The translations under genes were made by a program, and so were the position numbers. From IMG/VR virus record IMGVR_UViG_3300027754_000039, positions 62,001 to 126,000 of that record: a DNA stretch of 64,000 nucleotides. One strand, written 5' to 3'. Position 1 is the first letter of the stretch. Every line of letters starts with the position of its first letter. Of the stretch, positions 1,302 through 37,668 are shown one piece after another. The DNA is from a virus. The notes under the pieces were generated by a model that saw only the letters and a program-made list of their open reading frames with translations, had not been told where the DNA came from and made no database searches.

Positions 1302-3169
1302 TATACAAATCTACAAACTGTGTTTAATGTTGTTGTCCAATCTCCGCTAGCAATAGTATGTTCTACTGTAGTAACTGTAAATGCAATATCGTCTCTTTTA
1401 TATTGAGCTGGTAAATAATTAGTTGTAATTGCATTTCCAAAAGTAAATCCTTCTATTCCGTCCAGAGTACAAGAAAAATCTAATGGAAATAATGGCTTAG
1501 CAGTTAGGCCTAATTTACCAATTAATTCTGCTTTGATAGCAGCTTCTAAATCTGTAACGTTTTCAGGAGTAAGCCCGTCACTCGCTACTTTCTTTTTAAC
1601 AGCTACTAAAGCTTCGGGTATAGGTTCCTGTGCTTTATCTTCTTTACCCGTCAATAACCCTTGGCCCGGGCTTAATGTACTTTGAGCTTTAATAAATGCT
1701 TGCGCTGCCATTTCTTGAGGTATCTTTGCTGTCAATGACATAGTGCGAACTATACCATCTTGATCAACTGCTGATATAACATACGGTTTAATTTTTTCGT
1801 CTGAATATTCAGAATCGACTATTACCAATTCAGTTTCTTTTTCGGGATTGATAACTAACGTTAGTTTAAATAACTGAGCGCTATTTTTATAAATCATCGT
1901 AAATATATCATTTAAAAACTTAGCTATTGACATATCTGGAGACCGTTCTCCCTTCTCATTAACAGTTCCTAAATTTCTAAATACATCATTAATATATCGA
2001 ACATTAATCATAATTTTACTAGCATCTCCTGTTCCGTTTTCACCTTTAAATGCAGCATCAGTATCTCCAAATGTAAATACTTTACTTCCTGGAAAATTGC
2101 CGGCGCCGTCGCCATAGTCAGCGAACCCCGGAAATATACATTCTCCCGGATTTGCTGATACAAAAGCAACTAATGTAGGTATCGAAACTTTAGTCCAATC
2201 TTTATTACATTGTATTACAATTTCTTTAAATTTATAATCTTTTGCTATCTTTGCTTTAGCTCCTGATGCATTTTTATATAATTTATTAATAATAAATACT
2301 AACTTTTCCAATGTAATGTAATATTGAGCGGTTGCTTCTTGTGCTGGCTTATCCGCAGAAGCTTCTTGATTTTCTTCTTCTTGCACTGCTGGCATATGAG
2401 CCCAATCGGTTGGAAATTTAATTGCGCCAATTCCATACGTCTCATTAACTGAATCTACTACTGGTTCTGGGGTTGATGCTAATTGCACAAACCCATTAAC
2501 ATTTTGACATATAGTTAATGCTGGAAATATTTCTTCGTCTGCTCCCTTAATTGTAATATCGCCTGCACTGTCGGCCGCTTTAGCACTACCGCCTAACGGA
2601 TTTAATCCTTTTCCCATAGCTTGGCAACTGCAATCAAATCCTCCATTTTCATTAACGGTATAATTAAAATTATATATAGTTCCTGTAAAATTGCCTGGAG
2701 GGCCAGACGCTGCTGACGGTATTGACCATCCATAATATAACGTTACTTCATTTCCTAGAGTTAAAAATGGTATGTATGTATTTAATTGTGCTATGGAATA
2801 TACCGTAAATGTTAAATCTGCTTTTTTAATAGTACCAAAATCTCCATCGCTTGAAATATGTACTGTATTGATGTGTGGCTTAGGTATATATCTGCCGCTG
2901 TCTACTGAAGTAACTGTTCCTGTTCCTTGATATAAACCACTTGATCCTTTTTGTATATGACCAGCTTTATTTTTTTTAGAAAATGATAATCCACCACCTT
3001 GAGGCGGAGATAATGATATTCCTTCACATTTAGCAGTAGCTACTGCCATTTTTTTCAGCAACCAATTATGTGCCGATTGATCACGAACTTCGGCATTGTA
3101 ATATGCTTTACGTGCATTTAAGGCACTTTGAACGTTACCCGGTGTTGGTGTGAAAAATACTGTTGCCAT
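1301..3169 (-). CDS. baseplate hub protein (gp27/late-control-like)
   Basis: The product is 622 residues. The C-terminal part, including FPLDFSCTLDGIEGFTFGNA and then a TTVEHTIASGDWTTTL segment, matches the end of hub proteins of contractile tails, where the phrase 'tvteVsHtI..gdWtT.l' recurs. The N-terminal third contains beta-rich stretches with Gly/Ser. The start is fixed by TAATG overlap with the LysM gene, and its own stop overlaps the next gene in the same way. Order (tape measure, tube-cap-like, LysM/gp53-like, hub) fits a hub-and-spike assembly operon. A separate lysozyme-spike gene is not seen in this window. T4 gp27 is much shorter, so homology is at the level of the hub fold and is inferred. 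Confidence 0.65.
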   Translation of the reverse strand: MATVFFTPTPGNVQSALNARKAYYNAEVRDQSAHNWLLKKMAVATAKCEGISLSPPQGGGLSFSKKNKAGHIQKGSSGLYQGTGTVTSVDSGRYIPKPHINTVHISSDGDFGTIKKADLTFTVYSIAQLNTYIPFLTLGNEVTLYYGWSIPSAASGPPGNFTGTIYNFNYTVNENGGFDCSCQAMGKGLNPLGGSAKAADSAGDITIKGADEEIFPALTICQNVNGFVQLASTPEPVVDSVNETYGIGAIKFPTDWAHMPAVQEEENQEASADKPAQEATAQYYITLEKLVFIINKLYKNASGAKAKIAKDYKFKEIVIQCNKDWTKVSIPTLVAFVSANPGECIFPGFADYGDGAGNFPGSKVFTFGDTDAAFKGENGTGDASKIMINVRYINDVFRNLGTVNEKGERSPDMSIAKFLNDIFTMIYKNSAQLFKLTLVINPEKETELVIVDSEYSDEKIKPYVISAVDQDGIVRTMSLTAKIPQEMAAQAFIKAQSTLSPGQGLLTGKEDKAQEPIPEALVAVKKKVASDGLTPENVTDLEAAIKAELIGKLGLTAKPLFPLDFSCTLDGIEGFTFGNAITTNYLPAQYKRDDIAFTVTTVEHTIASGDWTTTLNTVCRFV

Positions 3170-3489
3170 TATCGAGAATTATTTGCATCTTGAAATTGAA
3201 CTAAAGCATCTTGATAATCTCTAGGAACTCTTACTTGAATGCCTGGCTCTAAATAAACCGAATCTCTTCGTAAGCTAGGATTTGCAGCTGCTATTATCCA
3301 CCATAAATTAGCATCTTGATAATATTTAGAAGCTAGCAAATCTAATCGCTCTCCAATACTCGTAACGACATATACATCATCTGTTGATCTTTCAATTGTA
3401 GGATCAATTAAGGTTGCATAGTATCTTTTTTTATTATCAACATCTAAACTAGTGTTTTGGTTGAATAAGTAGTTTTCGTATCTTGACAT
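3169..3489 (-). CDS. LysM-domain baseplate wedge protein (gp53-like)
   Basis: The product is 106 residues. From about residue 38 it carries a LysM-type module: DVYVVTSIGERLDLLASKYY, then the WWIIAAANP segment and a final PGIQVRVPRD. This is the pattern of T4 gp53, where the LysM-like fold holds adjacent baseplate wedges together. The first 35 residues (RYENYLFN...KKRYYATLI) resemble the gp53 N-terminus. It sits between the tube-cap-like protein and the hub, and its stop overlaps the hub start. No signal peptide is present, so it is a virion part and not a secreted wall-binding protein. Confidence 0.75.
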   Translation of the reverse strand: MSRYENYLFNQNTSLDVDNKKRYYATLIDPTIERSTDDVYVVTSIGERLDLLASKYYQDANLWWIIAAANPSLRRDSVYLEPGIQVRVPRDYQDALVQFQDANNSR

Positions 3490-3557
3490 TTATAATATAT
3501 ATTAAATTCTATTGGTTATCTTAAAAGTATTTTGCAGTTGCAAATCCTCCATTTGTA

Positions 3558-5954
3558 CTATTTAGCGAGGAAAAAATAACCAGTGGTGGACATTTTTAAT
3601 ACAGGAGCTGCAGCTCTTGTTTTTGGTTTATCTGCTTCCGTTTTAGCTTGTTTTGCTTTCTTTTCTTTACTAACTTGAGTAGGCTCTGCATCTGAAAGCC
3701 AATTTCCTGGCTTCGTACTTCCACCAAAAGGAGATAAACTATATACACGGCCTTTAAGCTGAGGACGATAATCGCCAATTACTTTAAACGTCATTGATAC
3801 ATCCATAGACAATGGCAATTGCTTTGCATTTGCATTTGTACCAGAATCTTCTGCTATATCCCAAGTAGTTTCGTCAGGTATAGTGTATGTAAGTGATTCA
3901 ATAAATCCTGGAGTTTGTTGAAATAAACTACCTATAGTAATACGCATAAATGGACCTCCTGGTTTGGTTCCTGAAGAAGTAAAGTCGGGCATTGTATATG
4001 AAGCTAAATAATTTAATTTACGCCACATAGGTACCATTTCTGCTCTTGATAAAGCATTTACTGTAAAATTAAATGATACAGACCGTTCAAATGAAGTATA
4101 TAAATAAGCTCCGTCAGGTCTACCCATTATATCAATACGATTCCATCCTGGAGAAAATGAATCTGAAAATCCGTTCATAGTACATCTAAATACCATTACA
4201 TTAGATCCAATATCACCATCTTCAAAATAAAATTTTATAAAATCTTCAGCTCCTGTTTTATAAACATTTTCCTTTGCTACATCTCCTATATCATAAGCAT
4301 TAACTTTATCTCCACGAAATCCTTTTTCATCAATTAAAATAGTTCTATTTTTTCCTAGATATTTATCTCCCGGAATTATATAATTGCTTGGATCGGTTCT
4401 GTCAGCTCCTATAGCTCCAGGAGTTCCAAATCCATATTTAGCTTCTAAATTATTTTTTGTATAATAATCTTTATTAGTGCCAGTACCTAAAATACTTTTT
4501 TCTTGAGTAGTCTTAGCATCAATATCATTACGAAAATCTCTAAATGACTTTTCGCCTTTATTTTTAGGTATTTTATTATACGCTAACGTTAGATAACTAT
4601 TAATATCCGTAGAAGGAGCATCTTTATATGCCTTTTCTCTAGAAGTAGACGTTGATAAATCTACTTTAGTAGAATTTAATTGGGCACCTGGTGTATAATT
4701 TGCTGTTTCTAATTTAGTTGCTAAGGTTTTAAGTTTAGACTGCGGTTTTATTCCTAAATCTATAGAGCTTTTAGTTCCTCTTAATGTACCAGCATAATTA
4801 TTTAAGTTACTTGAAGGATTAATTTTAGAAGCTTCTTGTACATTTTCAATTGAATTAGGTGTTGATACTGTATGCCTCTTAATATTTGTAATGCCAATTC
4901 CATACACAGATTGTGGGCCGGACAAACCTGATAGTGATAATATCGGCATTCCTAGCTGTACTAATGAAATCGCTGATATTGGTATTAAATTATCTGTTGC
5001 TCGGTTGTCTAATCCTAATTGTCTGCGTAATCCAATTAATCTATTCCCTGGCTGAGTTATCCCCGTTGGGTCGGCTACTGAATATGTTAATAACCCATTT
5101 TTAATTTTAGACACATTTTCATAGCTAGCTAATTCATTTGCAAACGGAATTCCATGACGAGTAAAGTGTAATCCTAAAGCTGTACCTGGAACTGATAATA
5201 GCGAAGCTACTCCGGTATGTATTCTTGTTTGTCGAGTTAATGGCCCTCCAATAGTTTCTACTTTAGGATTGGTTAAGCCTAAACCTATTTGTTTAACTAT
5301 CCATAAAAGACCTTTAGGCGAAGCCATAAATTTAGCAATACGTGCTGTATCTGCTACAATTCTATCTGCAACAGTTACTGCACCGCCTCTAATCAATCCA
5401 TCGTCAAATCCTGACTTAGATCCAAACCCCCAATATTGAGGTTTTTCATTTCCTTTACGCTGAATACCTCTTAAGATGTAAGGCTGTTGCATATACGTGG
5501 TATTATGCGACTCATCTCTTAAATTGTATTTTTTATATTCCTCGTCAATAGCTGATGGCGAATTTTGTTCCGTAGACTTAGCATATAAAAGACTTTTATT
5601 TGATTGACCAGATATACTAGCAACCACGCTATTGTATGTGTTAGAAGTACTATATCCTTGTACAGAGAATATTTTGCTGGTTAAAGCATTATTTTTTAAA
5701 TATCTAAACGGAGACCCATTACCTAATTGATTAATTAATGTAGCAGTACCAATAGCAAATTTGCTATTACCCATAGATATTTCTTTTTTATAATCAAAGG
5801 TATCTAACTTAGAAGGTCTAGCTCCATTAGCACTGAACTCTGCAGGTACTTCGTCGATATTATATTTCGAAGCATTAACCTTGTTTTCTAAAGACGGAGT
5901 TTTGAAATCCGAACGAAATTTTGATAAATCAGATTTTATATCTATTAATGCCAT
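3558..5954 (-). CDS. large baseplate/tail-tube-associated protein
   Basis: The product is 798 residues. The N-terminal two-thirds are Ser/Asn/Thr-rich without obvious motifs. Residues from about 580 onward (EDFIKFYFEDGD, VMVFRCTMNGFSDSFSPGWN, then GRPDGAYLYTSFERSVSFNF) form a beta-rich tube-like domain of the kind found in proteins that cap or initiate the tail tube (gp48/gp54 position). The C-terminal tail is Lys/Ala/Thr-rich. The gene lies 16 nt after the tape-measure gene and 68 nt before the gp53-like gene. That place in the operon fits a tube initiator or hub adaptor. The exact T4 equivalent is not established. Confidence 0.6.
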   Translation of the reverse strand: MALIDIKSDLSKFRSDFKTPSLENKVNASKYNIDEVPAEFSANGARPSKLDTFDYKKEISMGNSKFAIGTATLINQLGNGSPFRYLKNNALTSKIFSVQGYSTSNTYNSVVASISGQSNKSLLYAKSTEQNSPSAIDEEYKKYNLRDESHNTTYMQQPYILRGIQRKGNEKPQYWGFGSKSGFDDGLIRGGAVTVADRIVADTARIAKFMASPKGLLWIVKQIGLGLTNPKVETIGGPLTRQTRIHTGVASLLSVPGTALGLHFTRHGIPFANELASYENVSKIKNGLLTYSVADPTGITQPGNRLIGLRRQLGLDNRATDNLIPISAISLVQLGMPILSLSGLSGPQSVYGIGITNIKRHTVSTPNSIENVQEASKINPSSNLNNYAGTLRGTKSSIDLGIKPQSKLKTLATKLETANYTPGAQLNSTKVDLSTSTSREKAYKDAPSTDINSYLTLAYNKIPKNKGEKSFRDFRNDIDAKTTQEKSILGTGTNKDYYTKNNLEAKYGFGTPGAIGADRTDPSNYIIPGDKYLGKNRTILIDEKGFRGDKVNAYDIGDVAKENVYKTGAEDFIKFYFEDGDIGSNVMVFRCTMNGFSDSFSPGWNRIDIMGRPDGAYLYTSFERSVSFNFTVNALSRAEMVPMWRKLNYLASYTMPDFTSSGTKPGGPFMRITIGSLFQQTPGFIESLTYTIPDETTWDIAEDSGTNANAKQLPLSMDVSMTFKVIGDYRPQLKGRVYSLSPFGGSTKPGNWLSDAEPTQVSKEKKAKQAKTEADKPKTRAAAPVLKMSTTGYFFLAK

Positions 5955-12362: not shown

Positions 12363-13805
12363 ATGCCTAGACCTAAACAACAAAGACAATTGAAAAAATG
12401 CAAAATGTGTGATGTGCATTTTGAGCATTTACCATCATGGAATAAACAATATTGCAGTAAAAAATGTGCAAATGCAGACCCCAAAGTTAAACAAAAACAA
12501 CGCGATGCTTTACAACTAATATGGGATGCAAAAGGACATCCTATGACTCACAAAGACATTCAGAAGAAACATAAATTAACAATGACTTTGAAATATGGAG
12601 TTGAGCATGCATTGTGTAGCAATGACATTTTATCTAAATCTAAACAAACTAAATTGAAAAAATATGGAAATGAAAATTTCAATAATTTAGATAAAGTACA
12701 TGCAACTAAATTGAAAAAATATGGAAGTGCTACTTACAACGGTCCGGTGAAACGAATGATAACTAAATACAATGACATATTAATAAAATGGAAACATGTC
12801 GTTCCTATGTTTACTGAATTAGAGTATAATGGAGTTGATAATACTCAATATTCATTTCAGTGCAATGAATGCTTTAATGTTTTTCATTCATCAATTGACA
12901 ATGGCATTATTCCAATATGCCGAGTATGTATTCCTACTCAAGCAGTAACTCAATCAAAAGGAGAAAAAGAATTAATAGAGTATATACGATCTCTAGCCCC
13001 TAACTGCGTAATTATTGAAAATGATCGTACAATATTATCAGGAAAAGAATTAGATATTGTGCTACCTGAATATAATATAGCTATTGAGTATAATGGATTG
13101 TATTGGCATTCAGAAAGTAAATTAAATAGCAAAAAATATCATTTAAACAAGACTAAACAGTCTATATCCGCAGGTTATTCATTGATACATATATTTGACT
13201 ATCAATGGCATCAAAAGCAAGACATTGTTAAATCAATTATATCTACCAAGCTTAAGTGTAATACTACTATCCCGGCAAGAAAATGTGTCGTTAAAGAAAT
13301 TAAATCAAAAGTTAAAAATGATTTTTTAAATAAAACTCATTTACAGGGTTCGTGTAATTCCAGAGTGAATTTAGGATTGTATTACAATGACAATTTAGTT
13401 GCTGTATGTACTTTAGGAAGAGCTCGTTATACTAAACAATATGAGTGGGAGCTTATAAGATTTGCTTCAGAATTGAATTGCACCATAGTTGGTGGCTTTT
13501 CTAAATTACTATCGTATTTTATTAAAACGTATAATCCAAAAAATATATTTACTTATTGCGATAGGGCAATAAGCAATGGAAATGCCTATTTTAAAAGTAA
13601 TTTTAAATTAATAGGCGTTACTTCATCTAATTATTTTTACTTTAAAGGAGCTAATGTATACTCACGGGAGCTATTTCAAAAACATAAATTACAAAGTAAA
13701 ATTGCAATATTTGATAATACAATAACTGAGTATGAAAATATGTTGATTAATGGATATGATCGGTATTGGGACTGTGGTAATTATAAATTTTTATATACTC
13801 CTTAA
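12363..13805 (+). CDS. homing endonuclease with Vsr-like (EDxHD) domain, opposite strand
   Basis: The product is 480 residues and the only convincing plus-strand gene in the window. The N-terminus has a treble-clef-type zinc finger (KKCKMC...QYCSKKC, residues 13-38). Repeated LKKYG segments (TMTLKYGVEHALC, TKLKKYGNENFNN, TKLKKYGSATYNG) are DNA-binding repeats common in phage homing endonucleases. A second Cys cluster is near residues 165-195. The nuclease core reads GEKELIEYIRSL, then GKELDIVLPEYNIAIEYNGL and YWHSE, the Vsr-like EDxHD family. A C-terminal region of about 190 residues (VNLGLYYNDNLVAVCTLG, FTYCDRAISNGNAYFKS) is also found in such proteins. It interrupts the sheath-tube gene pair. 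Confidence 0.85.
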   Translation: MPRPKQQRQLKKCKMCDVHFEHLPSWNKQYCSKKCANADPKVKQKQRDALQLIWDAKGHPMTHKDIQKKHKLTMTLKYGVEHALCSNDILSKSKQTKLKKYGNENFNNLDKVHATKLKKYGSATYNGPVKRMITKYNDILIKWKHVVPMFTELEYNGVDNTQYSFQCNECFNVFHSSIDNGIIPICRVCIPTQAVTQSKGEKELIEYIRSLAPNCVIIENDRTILSGKELDIVLPEYNIAIEYNGLYWHSESKLNSKKYHLNKTKQSISAGYSLIHIFDYQWHQKQDIVKSIISTKLKCNTTIPARKCVVKEIKSKVKNDFLNKTHLQGSCNSRVNLGLYYNDNLVAVCTLGRARYTKQYEWELIRFASELNCTIVGGFSKLLSYFIKTYNPKNIFTYCDRAISNGNAYFKSNFKLIGVTSSNYFYFKGANVYSRELFQKHKLQSKIAIFDNTITEYENMLINGYDRYWDCGNYKFLYTP

Positions 13806-33665: not shown

Positions 33666-35573
33666 TTATTCTGGGATAATATTTGTTTCATCTAGCAATT
33701 TACCTTCAGACTCATTTAATACCTTTGGTTTCTTAGAAGTATACTTAGCTAATCCATACTTTTTAATAGTATCCATAGCTGATTCATTTCTAGAGTTCTT
33801 CCAAGCTACTTTTCCAATGGGATCATATCCTCTAGGATGCTCGTGAGTATTATATTTCATACCTTCTTTTGGGCGACCGGCTCCTGGCCAACCTCCTGCA
33901 GGTGTTTGTTTTTGTCTAGCTTTTGTATCGTATTTTTTCTGAAGAGATTTATCTACGCCTTCTTCTTTAGTAGGTTCTTTTTTCTCTTCCTTGCCGCCGG
34001 CAAATGGATTTGCTCCTTTTTCTTCGCCACCTTCTTCTTCTTCACCTCCTCCACCAAACGGATTTGCTGATTCTTCACCACCTTCTTTTTCCTCTGGCTC
34101 TTGATTTTTAGGGTCTGCTGGATCTTTACCTTCTTCTCCAATTTTAGTAAGACGGAAAGTATCTTTACCATCGGTGATTAAACCTGATTGTATTTCTGCC
34201 GCTTCATCCAACGTAAAATTAAATATATTTTTATATATCCATTCTTTAGACATTATTTTCTTTTCAATCATATCGCCTGCTAAAGTTACTTTAGTAGCGT
34301 ATAAAGTTAATTTCTCTTGTTCGTAAATTGTCGACGGAGAAGTCATTGTCAATTCAAAATCAACTAATTCTGCATTTGCAAATCCTTGAGCATATAAATG
34401 CACAATAGCAATTTTATGTAATTCAGAAATTACAATTCTTTGAATTCTTTCAATGGTTCTAGCAAATCGAACATCTTCAGCAGCTAGTGTAGCCTTTCCT
34501 GAAATTCCTTCTTCATATCCTAAAAATGCTTTGGGAACTTTTAAAGCTGCCATCATTTTATTACGAAGATATTCAATATCGTCAATACCTGTAAATTCCA
34601 TACCTGCTAAAGTATCAATTTCGGTTCCTGAAGACCCACCCCTTACTGGTAAGAAATAATCTTCAAGCATATTTTGCATATTGAACTTTAAATTATAATC
34701 TCCTGTCTGAGGGTCTACATAAGGTACCTTTTTCATTTGATTAATAATTTTTTGCATGTAAGCGTCAACTTCTTGAGGAGGAATATTTCCTACGTCTACT
34801 TTAAATATACGTTTCTCAGGAGCTCTCATTACACGATGAATTAACATCGCATCTTCCATTAACGTTAATTGTTTCCAAACTTTTCTAGCTCCTTCAAGCA
34901 TAGACTTACCATAGGGTAAGAAGTTTGAGTCATTAATTAAACGAAAATGAGCAATCTCAAAGTTTTCATATATAATATTTCCTCCACCTAACTGCTTGAA
35001 TTGCACGTGGTATGGATTGTCTAATGTCATTCCTTCTTCACGGATAATTTCATATGCAGACATCGGAGTAACATTTACAATTCCAATTTCTTCTTGAATG
35101 TCTAAATGCAAAAATAAATCTCCATATTTACACATATTACGAACCCATGGCCATAAATTAAATTCAATGTTTAAAACATCATAAAATAAATTATGTAGTA
35201 TTTTTTTAATATTTTCATTGTCACTGGTAATGCGCAATACATCACCAAAGTCATCTTTCATAACTGTTTCGTCTGCATAGATATCTAATGCCGATGATAA
35301 AATTGCGTCTTGATCCATAACTTCATAATCTGTATACAATTCAGTCTTAGATGAAAAGTAATTGTAATTTGGATTATATGTATTTAATGAATTAGGACGA
35401 ACCCCATGCAACCTAGTAAATCGATCAATAAATTTTGAGTTATGTGCGTTACCCATTGATTGTAAATGATCATTATCAACTACTTTAAGTTGATTCTTAC
35501 CCACTTTACGCACGATAACATTGGTATTAAAGAGACGCTTTAATCGACCGTATAATGTTTTATCTGCTGCCAT
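33666..35573 (-). CDS. 20: portal protein (gp20)
   Basis: The product is 635 residues. Recognisable blocks are YTDYEVMDQDAILSSALDIY, ADETVMKDDFGDVLRI, KYGDLFLHLDIQEEIGI, HFRLINDSNFLPYGKSMLEG and EEGISGKATLAAEDVRFART, all typical of T4-like portals. The portal ring is the DNA entry channel and the docking site for terminase and neck. The C-terminal 150 residues are an acidic low-complexity extension with two ANPF repeats (SANPFGGGGEEEE, GANPFAGGKEEKK). ATATTTAT lies 20 nt upstream. Confidence 0.95.
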   Translation of the reverse strand: MAADKTLYGRLKRLFNTNVIVRKVGKNQLKVVDNDHLQSMGNAHNSKFIDRFTRLHGVRPNSLNTYNPNYNYFSSKTELYTDYEVMDQDAILSSALDIYADETVMKDDFGDVLRITSDNENIKKILHNLFYDVLNIEFNLWPWVRNMCKYGDLFLHLDIQEEIGIVNVTPMSAYEIIREEGMTLDNPYHVQFKQLGGGNIIYENFEIAHFRLINDSNFLPYGKSMLEGARKVWKQLTLMEDAMLIHRVMRAPEKRIFKVDVGNIPPQEVDAYMQKIINQMKKVPYVDPQTGDYNLKFNMQNMLEDYFLPVRGGSSGTEIDTLAGMEFTGIDDIEYLRNKMMAALKVPKAFLGYEEGISGKATLAAEDVRFARTIERIQRIVISELHKIAIVHLYAQGFANAELVDFELTMTSPSTIYEQEKLTLYATKVTLAGDMIEKKIMSKEWIYKNIFNFTLDEAAEIQSGLITDGKDTFRLTKIGEEGKDPADPKNQEPEEKEGGEESANPFGGGGEEEEGGEEKGANPFAGGKEEKKEPTKEEGVDKSLQKKYDTKARQKQTPAGGWPGAGRPKEGMKYNTHEHPRGYDPIGKVAWKNSRNESAMDTIKKYGLAKYTSKKPKVLNESEGKLLDETNIIPE

Positions 35574-35626: not shown

Positions 35627-36805
35627 TTAAAGAAGCCACGTTAAATCTTCGTCTTCGCCTCTTTTACCGGTGTCCATAGACCATCCAGTTTCTTTTCTCA
35701 TTCCAGCAGTATTACTGTAAACGCCTCGTCCATTACCAAAATAATCTAAAGTTTTTCTATTTAGATCCATTCCTTGCTGTCGAAGCTTTAAGGCAGTGTC
35801 TCTTATCCATAATCCAATAGAAAACGCCATTACTAAATCGTCGTTATAACCATGCTGTGCTTCAGGTTTTGACCCATTCCACACAAAAACATACAACTCT
35901 TCTATTAATCGTCTAGAGTGAATTACAGGAACTCGCTCTCTCATGTAAGTATCCAATTTGGAAATTACTAAAGGGCGAGTGCGAGATGAAGTTGTAAACC
36001 CAGCTGTCATTGCAGAAGTGTCTCTTAAATCAACATATCTAGCTAATTGTTGAGATACATCTGACAATCCACTATCTTTAGAAGAATAGTATAAATTTTT
36101 ATAGCCTCTGTCAATTGCTACTTGAATTGAAGCCCAACCCACATTAGCATTTTCAATCACTAGCAAAGCGTCATTGTACTCTGTTGCAATATTCACTAAC
36201 ATATTTCCATATTCTTTAGTGGATATTTGTCCTTTATATTCAGCTACTTGCGTTACAGATTCTACATCAATAACATGAAATGCTGAGTAGTCAGCTCCGT
36301 CACCTCGAGCAACGTCAGCTACAACTACATAATCTCTTTGGTAATTTGCTGGTTCCCATATCCATAAATCTCCACTATTTCTAGTTTCAATAGGATCTTT
36401 AATATGAGTTGTTTCATACCATTTTAATACCTGACCTTCAATTACAGAATGACCTGAAGTGATAAAGTCGCAGTTATGTGATACAATTCCATCTACTATA
36501 AAAATATTTCCGCGATCGACTTCTATAATATCATATAACTCTATAGGCTGAGTTTCGATATTAATATCAATAACGGTCACGATATTATTATCAATTGAAT
36601 CTATAATACTACCTATTTGAAGCTTGTTAGCCTCTAATTCTAATCTATTACCAATAAATTTATGTGTTTCAGAACATCTTAATATAATATTTGATGATAA
36701 TGTAATTACATAAATTTTATCTTTTCGTAACTTACGTACGCCGGCAAAATCTTGATACCCATTAGGCGTCAATATTTCAAATCTTGTATTGCGTTTTATT
36801 TGCAT
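35627..36805 (-). CDS. 17: split terminase large subunit, C-part: C-intein + nuclease half (gp17-C)
   Basis: The product is 392 residues. Residues 1-111 are the C-half of a split intein: FEILTPNGYQDFAGVRKL, the block B-like ILRCSETHKFIG, and the end ELYDIIEVDRGN, then IFIVDGIVSHN followed by Cys112. The terminase part begins at Cys112 (CDFITSGHSVIEG). It has the RNase H-type nuclease: VVADVARGDGADYS (Asp164), LLVIENANVGW (Glu218) and a late HGYNDDLVMAF (Asp). It lies 14 nt downstream of the N-part gene. Joined by trans-splicing with the N-part, the enzyme would be 528 residues: the packaging ATPase-nuclease. Confidence 0.93.
   Translation of the reverse strand: MQIKRNTRFEILTPNGYQDFAGVRKLRKDKIYVITLSSNIILRCSETHKFIGNRLELEANKLQIGSIIDSIDNNIVTVIDINIETQPIELYDIIEVDRGNIFIVDGIVSHNCDFITSGHSVIEGQVLKWYETTHIKDPIETRNSGDLWIWEPANYQRDYVVVADVARGDGADYSAFHVIDVESVTQVAEYKGQISTKEYGNMLVNIATEYNDALLVIENANVGWASIQVAIDRGYKNLYYSSKDSGLSDVSQQLARYVDLRDTSAMTAGFTTSSRTRPLVISKLDTYMRERVPVIHSRRLIEELYVFVWNGSKPEAQHGYNDDLVMAFSIGLWIRDTALKLRQQGMDLNRKTLDYFGNGRGVYSNTAGMRKETGWSMDTGKRGEDEDLTWLL
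36473..36805 (-). other. C-intein (111 residues) of atypically split TerL intein
   Basis: It starts at the gene's own ATG and ends with SHN before Cys+1 (codon 36470-36472). The block B His (SETH), block F (LYDIIEVDRGN) and block G (His-Asn) are all present, so it looks active. There is no room for a homing endonuclease domain. Similarity in layout and wording to the AceL-TerL C-intein is clear to me from memory. Confidence 0.9.
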
Positions 36806-36819
36806 TTTATTGTTTAATT

Positions 36820-37668
36820 CTAATAGCTATCTAAATAATCTAAATTATATAAGTCTTCTAATGTTATTTTAAATTCTTCATTAGTTAGCTTATCTCGTAC
36901 CGTTACTTTTGATTCGCCCCATAAACAATCACATTCTTGAGCTGCTCCTTTAACTCCTAACAATTCATTTTGCTTATCTCTCCATATTTGATCTCTGTCA
37001 GGATGAACGTCCCAGCGAAGACGAATAGTATTAAACCTATTTCTACCTTCCTCAGCTCCTACCCATGTTTGATGAAAAAAGTTACCGGTGCCATTAGGAG
37101 TGGATAATATAATTGCTCCTCCTCCCGTTGCTAAAGTCTGTTGCGATGATATCCAAATTTCTTCTACATTGGAAATAAACGCAGCCTCATCTATTATTAA
37201 TAAAGACAATGCTTCTGAACGTCCAGAGTCTCCTGACGATGAAGTTGCTTTAATTTGAGAACCGTTATTAAGACGTAATGATAATTTATTATCTTCTGTT
37301 GCTGGCAATTTAAGCCATGAAGGTAAATTTTCATACATGACTTTTACCTTTAATACTAAATTTTTAGCTACTTCTTGTTTAGTAGCGATAACTAGAATAT
37401 TTTTATCCCCAAAAAACGTCATAAGCCAAAGAGCATAGCCGGCACTTAGAGTTGATATACCTAATTGCCTTGATTTTAGTATGACGTTATAATCGTGATC
37501 TCGTAGGTTTCTTAAGGTCTCCTCTTGAAATGTATATAAATGAAAAGGTATTTTTCCTTTTTGAGGATGTTGAATTTGGCAAAACTTTTTCATGAAGTGA
37601 ACAGGATCTGTTAAACATTTCTTGTACTCTTCTTTTATTATTTCTTTTAATGTCTTTGCTTGACTCAT
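36820..37668 (-). CDS. 17: split terminase large subunit, N-part: ATPase half + N-intein (gp17-N)
   Basis: The product is 282 residues. Residues 1-247 are the ATPase half of TerL: the adenine-side segment PFHLYTFQEETLRNLRDH, the Walker A-like SRQLGIST (66-73; Ile in place of the usual Lys), Walker B LLIIDEAAF (156-164) and the coupling motif ILSTPNGTGN (187-196). Cys248 starts a 35-residue N-intein. The terminase sequence otherwise stops in mid-fold just before the nuclease, which the next gene supplies. Both genes form one unit. The enzyme drives DNA into the prohead and cuts the concatemer. Confidence 0.93.
   Translation of the reverse strand: MSQAKTLKEIIKEEYKKCLTDPVHFMKKFCQIQHPQKGKIPFHLYTFQEETLRNLRDHDYNVILKSRQLGISTLSAGYALWLMTFFGDKNILVIATKQEVAKNLVLKVKVMYENLPSWLKLPATEDNKLSLRLNNGSQIKATSSSGDSGRSEALSLLIIDEAAFISNVEEIWISSQQTLATGGGAIILSTPNGTGNFFHQTWVGAEEGRNRFNTIRLRWDVHPDRDQIWRDKQNELLGVKGAAQECDCLWGESKVTVRDKLTNEEFKITLEDLYNLDYLDSY
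36823..36927 (-). other. N-intein (35 residues) of atypically split TerL intein
   Basis: It begins with Cys1 (codon 36925-36927) in ...QECD-CLWGES and continues KVTVRDK, then FKITLEDLYNL, which is the block A pattern. The fragment contains only block A. Block B lies in the partner gene, hence the atypical split position. Confidence 0.9.

What the first reader, a model, noticed from the sequence alone, without database searches (positions are those of the whole stretch)
35627..37668. Large terminase split by an atypical natural split intein, with genes adjacent
Two consecutive genes encode ATPase half + 35-residue N-intein (block A only, Cys248) and 111-residue C-intein + nuclease half (block B SETH, end SHN, Cys+1). 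The exteins join as ...QECD/CDFITSG..., restoring a 528-residue TerL. The arrangement matches the known AceL-TerL class of atypically split inteins (25-residue N-intein), but this N-intein is longer. The two genes are only 14 nt apart, without the homing endonuclease gene that sits between halves in several fractured phage genes. An essential packaging enzyme would thus depend on trans-splicing, which could act as a timing step.
Basis: partly seen in the sequence, partly recalled or inferred. Interest (0 to 1): 0.95.

Follow-up and report, generated by a model that had tools for sequence, protein, structure and literature searches.

The report
Phage packaging motor split by intein
A phage's DNA-packaging motor is encoded as two separate proteins that a split intein should splice together, and comparison with relatives suggests the intein jumped in recently with a DNA-cutting enzyme gene that was later deleted, leaving a 20-base remnant.

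Summary
A T4-type TerL is encoded by two genes 14 nt apart: ATPase half + 35-aa N-intein (Cys1), and 111-aa C-intein (SETH, SHN, Cys+1) + nuclease half. Joined, the exteins give 528 aa. It belongs to the known AceL-/GOS-/Cat-TerL kind of atypically split intein (C-intein vs solved Cat, E 4e-11). The 35-aa N-intein is ordinary: relatives span 28-37 aa, and GOS-TerL has 37.

New here is its history. (1) Near relatives of this TerL (92-94% DNA identity) have no intein, while the intein is 94-98% identical to copies in TerLs only 78-80% identical (dS 0.045 intein, 1.08 extein). It therefore moved horizontally, recently. (2) Its sister copy still has an endonuclease-like ORF between the halves, overlapping the C-half start. 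The window lacks that ORF but keeps its last 20 nt, so "no HEG" is a deletion. Other loci show the same scar. (3) Losing the ORF did not reunite the gene, probably because the C-half leader lies inside the ORF's tail.

Trans-splicing is inferred, not shown; nothing supports a timing role. Relatives include TerLs in three pieces with two split inteins. Verdict: new member of a known kind.

The parts
36928..37668 (-). N-extein: ATPase half of TerL (247 aa, ends ...GAAQECD)
   Evidence: PF03237 Terminase_6N 47.6 bits, above cut-off; phrog_5989 2.5e-43 and phrog_2 3.8e-34
36823..36927 (-). N-intein, 35 aa, block A only, Cys1 codon at 36925-36927
   Evidence: Translation; 98.0% DNA identity to L004 N-intein; 28-37 aa in relatives
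36806..36825 (-). Scar: 20 nt TATTAGAATTAAACAATAAA identical to the 3' end of the intervening endonuclease-like ORF of L003. It now gives the last N-intein codon (TAT), its stop (TAG) and the leader of the C gene
   Evidence: DNA of L002, L003, L004 side by side
36473..36805 (-). C-intein, 111 aa; SETH at 36662-36673, SHN at 36473-36481
   Evidence: TIGR01443 19.5 bits, above cut-off; PDB 6dsl_B (Cat) E 4e-11; alignments A1 and A3
35630..36472 (-). C-extein: nuclease half of TerL (281 aa), begins with Cys+1 (codon 36470-36472); stop codon at 35627-35629
   Evidence: phrog_24361 6.5e-12; T4 gp17 structures 3cpe/3ezk E about 2e-8
33666..35573 (-). Downstream neighbour, 635-aa ORF; portal-like by position only (context)
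   Evidence: ORF list; matched in the same place downstream of TerL in related loci; no profile search was run on it

Best explanation
The TerL gene carries a naturally split class-1 intein of the AceL-/Cat-TerL type. The ATPase half with its 35-residue N-intein and the nuclease half with its 111-residue C-intein are translated separately from adjacent genes. They associate to form a HINT fold and trans-splice QECD to CDFITSG, giving a 528-residue motor. The element arrived by horizontal transfer as N-intein, endonuclease-like ORF and C-intein, inserted between the ATPase and nuclease domains. The ORF was later lost by a deletion of the homing-cycle decay type. The gene stayed in two pieces because the C half's start region lies inside the ORF's 3' end, so most deletions must keep that tail and cannot restore a single frame. 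Shown by sequence: anatomy, conserved catalytic residues, horizontal transfer, ORF loss with scar. Inferred: that splicing happens, that packaging needs it, that the lost ORF was an active homing endonuclease, and why the split persists.
For: Anatomy. Cat match, E 4e-11. The catalytic positions Cys1, S45..H48, H110, N111 and Cys+1 are all present, and H48, S109, H110, N111 and C112 are invariant in alignment A1. The contiguous relative L149 folds as an intein (pLDDT 94; matches gp41-1, VidaL and Cat), and by alignment the window's break falls just after its first short helix. Intein under constraint: dN/dS about 0.33 against L003 and L004. Transfer: C-intein DNA 97.9% and 93.7% identical to L003 and L004 while extein DNA is 78-80%; intein-free L005 and L006 are 92-94%. 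dS against L003 is 0.045 for the intein and 1.08 for the extein. Scar: the window reads ...GATAGCTATTAGAATTAAACAATAAAATG. L004 has ...GATAGCTA before its remnant, and L003's ORF ends ...TTTTATTAGAATTAAACAATAAAATG. The window's copy and L003 (ORF present) are sisters, 100/89 support. Independent parallel: L150/L152 keep the ORF and L151/L153/L154 lack it, in phages 96-99% identical. Endonuclease assignment of the ORF: invariant E/D/H residues and a weak fold match to I-Bth0305I.
Against: No protein data: neither a spliced TerL nor intein fragments have been seen. Cat-type inteins are sensitive to the extein residues next to the junction (PMC11766414), and whether C-D at -2/-1 suits this intein is untested. 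The endonuclease assignment of the lost ORF rests on conserved residues and a sub-threshold fold match (Foldseek E 0.14), with no sequence-profile hit. The direction of transfer (into the window's lineage rather than out of it) is the simpler reading, not proven.
Confidence: 0.9

Rival explanations
1. The two halves work as a non-covalent two-subunit TerL and the intein pieces are dead remnants.
For: ATPase and nuclease are separate domains and the break lies between them. Genes in pieces that work without splicing are known in phages (a ribonucleotide reductase case is cited in PMC10448857).
Against: All catalytic positions are kept. dN/dS is about 0.33 in the intein after recent transfer. 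N- and C-intein are kept together in dozens of distinct loci. Dead intein parts should decay.
Confidence: 0.05
2. Assembly or sequencing error: really one contiguous intein in one frame.
For: Contiguous inteins exist at this site or 2 residues upstream (L039, L149, L167).
Against: A second record is identical over 13 kb. The sister loci have an ORF of about 250 aa, or a remnant of it, between the halves. The spacer contains stops and the shared ORF tail.
Confidence: 0.01
3. An RNA-level device (intron or programmed bypass) joins the halves.
For: TerL introns are known in phages, for example ICP1 (PMC10448857).
Against: No Rfam family passes its threshold anywhere in the window. The intervening coding sequence is a conserved intein, not an intron.
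Confidence: 0.01
4. Split intein as above, but the state without an intervening ORF is ancestral and the ORF invaded other copies later.
For: Loci with and without the ORF are interleaved on the tree, at least 6 changes. The scattering alone does not fix a direction.
Against: The window, L103, L117, L145, L151 and L174 carry tail codons of the ORF at the same place. L004 carries a partly deleted one. In the window the scar also replaces the N-intein stop.
Confidence: 0.04

Closest known systems
AceL-TerL, GOS-TerL and the engineered consensus Cat (atypically split TerL inteins)
   Same: Host gene TerL, N-intein of about 25-37 aa, C-intein of about 104-115 aa, homologous C-intein (Cat 6dsl_B, E 4e-11), Cys+1; Cys1 as in AceL and Cat.
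   Different: N-intein is 35 aa (AceL 25, GOS 37, Cat 30; PMC11766414), which is within the natural range of 28-37 seen here. Extein context is QECD^CDF. Activity is untested.
Fractured genes with split inteins and an intervening endonuclease gene (Dassa et al. 2009, known here only from citations and memory)
   Same: Sister locus L003 and most relatives have an ORF between the halves.
   Different: The window has lost that ORF and keeps only its last 20 nt.
VidaL and gp41-1 inteins
   Same: HINT fold of the contiguous relative L149 matches 6vgv and 6qaz.
   Different: Low sequence identity (21-26%); split position and host gene were not compared here.
EDxHD/Vsr-like homing endonuclease I-Bth0305I (for the lost ORF)
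   Same: Best endonuclease match of the predicted fold, 3r3p, probability 0.91; invariant E, D, E, H, D residues.
   Different: Foldseek E 0.14 and no profile hit: a resemblance, not membership.

Membership tests
Atypically split TerL intein (AceL/GOS/Cat kind) | C-intein homologous to Cat | tested here: met
   PDB 6dsl_B, E 4e-11 with the C half and 1.2e-11 with the two intein parts joined
Atypically split TerL intein (AceL/GOS/Cat kind) | Host protein is a T4-type TerL | tested here: met
   PF03237 above cut-off; terminase PHROGs for both halves; T4 gp17 structures
Atypically split TerL intein (AceL/GOS/Cat kind) | Short N-intein with block A only, break after the first short helix | tested here: met
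   35 aa, within 28-37 in relatives; helix 23-28 in the model of L149, break placed by alignment A3
Atypically split TerL intein (AceL/GOS/Cat kind) | Class-1 catalytic residues: Cys1, block B His, penultimate His, Asn, Cys+1 | tested here: met
   C-intein positions and Cys+1 invariant in A1; Cys1 in the N-inteins listed
Atypically split TerL intein (AceL/GOS/Cat kind) | Same insertion site as AceL-TerL | not tested
   AceL extein sequence not retrieved; a relative with a QEFE^CEFIG site exists (L164)
Atypically split TerL intein (AceL/GOS/Cat kind) | Trans-splicing activity | not testable with these tools
   Needs co-expression or mass spectrometry
Fractured gene with intervening homing endonuclease gene | Endonuclease gene between the two intein halves | tested here: not met
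   14-nt spacer; no homologue of the ORF found in the 181,588-bp record. Sister L003 has the ORF
EDxHD/Vsr-like homing endonuclease (the lost ORF, in relatives) | Fold and sequence of the family | tested here: inconclusive
   3r3p probability 0.91 but E 0.14; DUF559 E 0.064, below cut-off; no PDB sequence hit

The most novel reading that the evidence does not exclude
Fracturing by a split intein plus an endonuclease gene works as a one-way ratchet. Once the endonuclease gene has inserted inside the intein, its loss leaves the host gene in two pieces that depend on trans-splicing, because the downstream half starts inside the lost gene's tail. Repeated at a second site, this gives a TerL in three pieces with two mutually distinct split inteins (L051; L179/L180, which carry two intervening ORFs), i.e. 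an essential enzyme assembled by two trans-splicing reactions.
Probability: 0.4. Interest if true: 0.65.

Novelty: new member of a known kind. Interest (0 to 1): 0.45.

Why it matters
The window itself adds one member to a known class. Its relatives give a near-complete natural series: empty site, split intein with the intervening ORF, decaying ORF, deleted ORF with scar, and contiguous intein, with empty and filled alleles in closely related phages. That makes the homing-cycle idea testable for split inteins, and it offers many new short-N-intein pairs for protein labelling. Cultured phages with the same kind of fractured TerL exist, so trans-splicing in a real infection can be tested; no such test was seen in the papers searched here.

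Tried and rejected
Searched the rest of the record for a second intein or for the missing ORF: only this intein passes and no homologue of the ORF was found (no positive control, so weak). Tested for an intron: no Rfam hit. Tried to place the ORF by Pfam, PHROGs and PDB profile: nothing above cut-off. Asked whether contiguous relatives (L039, L149, L167) are the ancestral state or re-fusions: they sit in three places among split copies and L167 keeps a split-type N-tail, but without a root this stays open. Looked for an identity gradient (co-conversion) around the site between the window and L005/L006: no usable pattern. The timing-step idea: no evidence either way.

Full report
OBSERVATION. 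The window lies in a 181,588-bp IMG/VR virus record. On the minus strand, 36820-37668 encodes 282 aa and 35627-36805 encodes 392 aa, 14 nt apart. The first is a terminase ATPase domain (PF03237, 47.6 bits, cut-off 22) that ends QECD and continues for 35 residues, CLWGESKVTVRDKLTNEEFKITLEDLYNLDYLDSY. The second starts with 111 residues ending GIVSHN and continues CDFITSG... as a TerL nuclease domain (T4 gp17 structures). The C-terminal intein motif passes NCBIfam's cut-off (TIGR01443), and the C-intein matches the solved Cat intein, PDB 6dsl, with E 4e-11. Exteins of 247 and 281 aa join to 528 aa. Intein-free relatives read through QECD-CDFITSG in one frame.

NOT AN ARTEFACT. A second record, L002, is identical over 13,176 bp. 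L004 and L023 have the same two-gene layout, and many further relatives are split at the same place.

FAMILY. From the retrieved loci, 51 distinct TerL inteins were extracted with both parts (or, for a few, as one contiguous intein). N-inteins are 28-37 aa where no endonuclease is fused in frame, so 35 is ordinary. A review gives 25 (AceL), 37 (GOS-TerL) and 30 (Cat) (PMC11766414). Two neighbouring sites occur, QECD^CDF (as here) and QE^CDCDF, plus a third in the ATPase domain near Walker B. A contiguous relative, L149, was modelled with an alignment that includes the window's C-intein: pLDDT 94, intein (HINT) fold, matches among the best eight being gp41-1, VidaL and Cat. By the alignment, the window's break falls in the loop after its first short helix.

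HORIZONTAL TRANSFER. DNA identity of the window to L003 is 97.9% in the C-intein but 78.3% in the extein that follows. To L004 it is 98.0% and 93.7% in the N- and C-intein but about 80% in the exteins. To L005 and L006, which have no intein, it is 92-94% in the exteins. Synonymous divergence between window and L003 is 0.045 in the intein and 1.08 in the extein; window against L005 and L006 exteins it is 0.28-0.37. So the intein copies share an ancestor more recently than the TerL genes that hold them, and more recently than the split from the intein-free relatives. At least one transfer happened; transfer into the window's lineage is the simplest reading but the direction is not proven. In the intein dN/dS is about 0.33, so it has been under some constraint since.

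THE MISSING ENDONUCLEASE GENE. L003, the sister of the window's intein (100/89 support), has an ORF between the halves that ends ...TGTACTTTTATTAGAATTAAACAATAAAATG; the ATG is the C-half start. L004 has a remnant of about 160 nt, with the N-intein ending ...GATAGCTAATATA. The window reads ...GATAGCTATTAGAATTAAACAATAAAATG. The window thus equals the L004-type left side joined to the ORF's last 20 nt, with a 2-nt (TA) overlap at the join. The N-intein's last codon (TAT) and stop (TAG) now come from the ORF tail. Five other loci without an intact ORF (L103, L117, L145, L151, L174) show tail codons of the same kind. A separate pair of phages 96-99% identical differs by the presence (L150, L152) or absence (L151, L153, L154) of the ORF. 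On the intein tree, loci with and without the ORF are interleaved, with at least 6 changes forced by well-supported branches.

WHAT THE ORF IS. About 240-295 aa, with a cysteine-rich middle (CxCG...YCRxCP) and a C-terminal domain with invariant E186, D197, E208, E211, H214 and D224 and nearly invariant D210 (numbering of L049). No Pfam, PHROG or PDB sequence match passes. The predicted fold (pLDDT 87) matches the catalytic domain of the homing endonuclease I-Bth0305I with probability 0.91 but E 0.14, and Vsr more weakly. EDxHD/Vsr-like endonuclease is the best guess, not a demonstrated membership. In the two cultured-phage cases scanned, a Vibrio and a Providencia phage, the corresponding segment is GIY-YIG-like (PF01541 28.6 bits; PF19835 26.8 bits; both above cut-off).

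MECHANISM. Shown: two genes, conserved catalytic residues, a fold compatible with a class-1 intein, constraint, recent transfer, ORF loss with scar. Inferred: the halves are translated separately, associate through the intein pieces and trans-splice; packaging depends on this; the lost ORF drove the transfer. In the homing-cycle model (PMC3229294) loss of the endonuclease leaves a mini-intein. Here it leaves a split one. The likely reason is that the C-half leader and start overlap the ORF's 3' end, so a deletion must keep that tail. Whether the contiguous copies (L039, L149, L167), which sit in three places on the tree, are re-fusions or survivors is open. No Shine-Dalgarno motif precedes either half, as in almost all genes tested in this window (2 of 36 have one), so the leader's role is judged by position only.

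CULTURED RELATIVES. Vibrio phages 1.255.O, K469, VP-1 and EniLVp02, Providencia phage PSTRCR_127 and Serratia phage 92A1 carry TerL in two parts with the same kind of C-intein. In most of them one or more of these parts is annotated as hypothetical or coil-containing protein. These offer a direct laboratory test.

THREE-PIECE TerL. L179/L180 encode TerL as piece 1, ORF, piece 2, ORF, piece 3 in overlapping frames; the exteins add up to 527 aa, 62% identical to the window's TerL. The two inteins are only 31% identical to each other. L051 has the same three pieces with the second ORF gone. If active, the motor needs two trans-splicing reactions.

JUDGEMENT. The window's feature is a new member of a known kind. 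The added value lies in the reconstructed history and the relatives.

Noticed in passing
L179 (about 1476-5885) and L180 (1881-6236): TerL encoded in three pieces with two different split inteins and two endonuclease-like ORFs, all in overlapping frames; two records from different metagenomes, 99.5% identical. Not found in the literature searched.
   Followed up: partly
L051:3675-7185: A related three-piece TerL (61% identical to the window's) in which the second intervening ORF is gone but the first remains.
   Followed up: partly
L157:10-3862: TerL with a split intein near Walker B and a contiguous intein at QE^CDADF in the same protein.
   Followed up: no
L085 (Vibrio phage VP-1, MH363700.1), 1837-5179: A contiguous intein inside the Walker A region (QSGK^TT) plus a split intein at QEYD^C, with a GIY-YIG-like domain fused in frame to the N half; annotated simply as terminase.
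   Followed up: no
L082 and L083 (Vibrio phages 1.255.O and K469): A GIY-YIG endonuclease domain is fused in frame to the N-intein, so the N half ends in an endonuclease and splicing would release it.
   Followed up: partly
window, 36 genes tested: Almost no Shine-Dalgarno motifs (2 of 36) and AT-rich leaders, as in hosts that do not use them; nearest cultured TerLs are from Flavobacterium and Microcystis phages.
   Followed up: no
L142:1776-3983: TerL with what looks like a further large intein at the ATPase motif III region (ILS^C) in the same ORF as the N half.
   Followed up: no
window 12363-13805 (+): A 480-aa ORF on the plus strand in a window whose other long ORFs are nearly all on the minus strand; not examined.
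   Followed up: no
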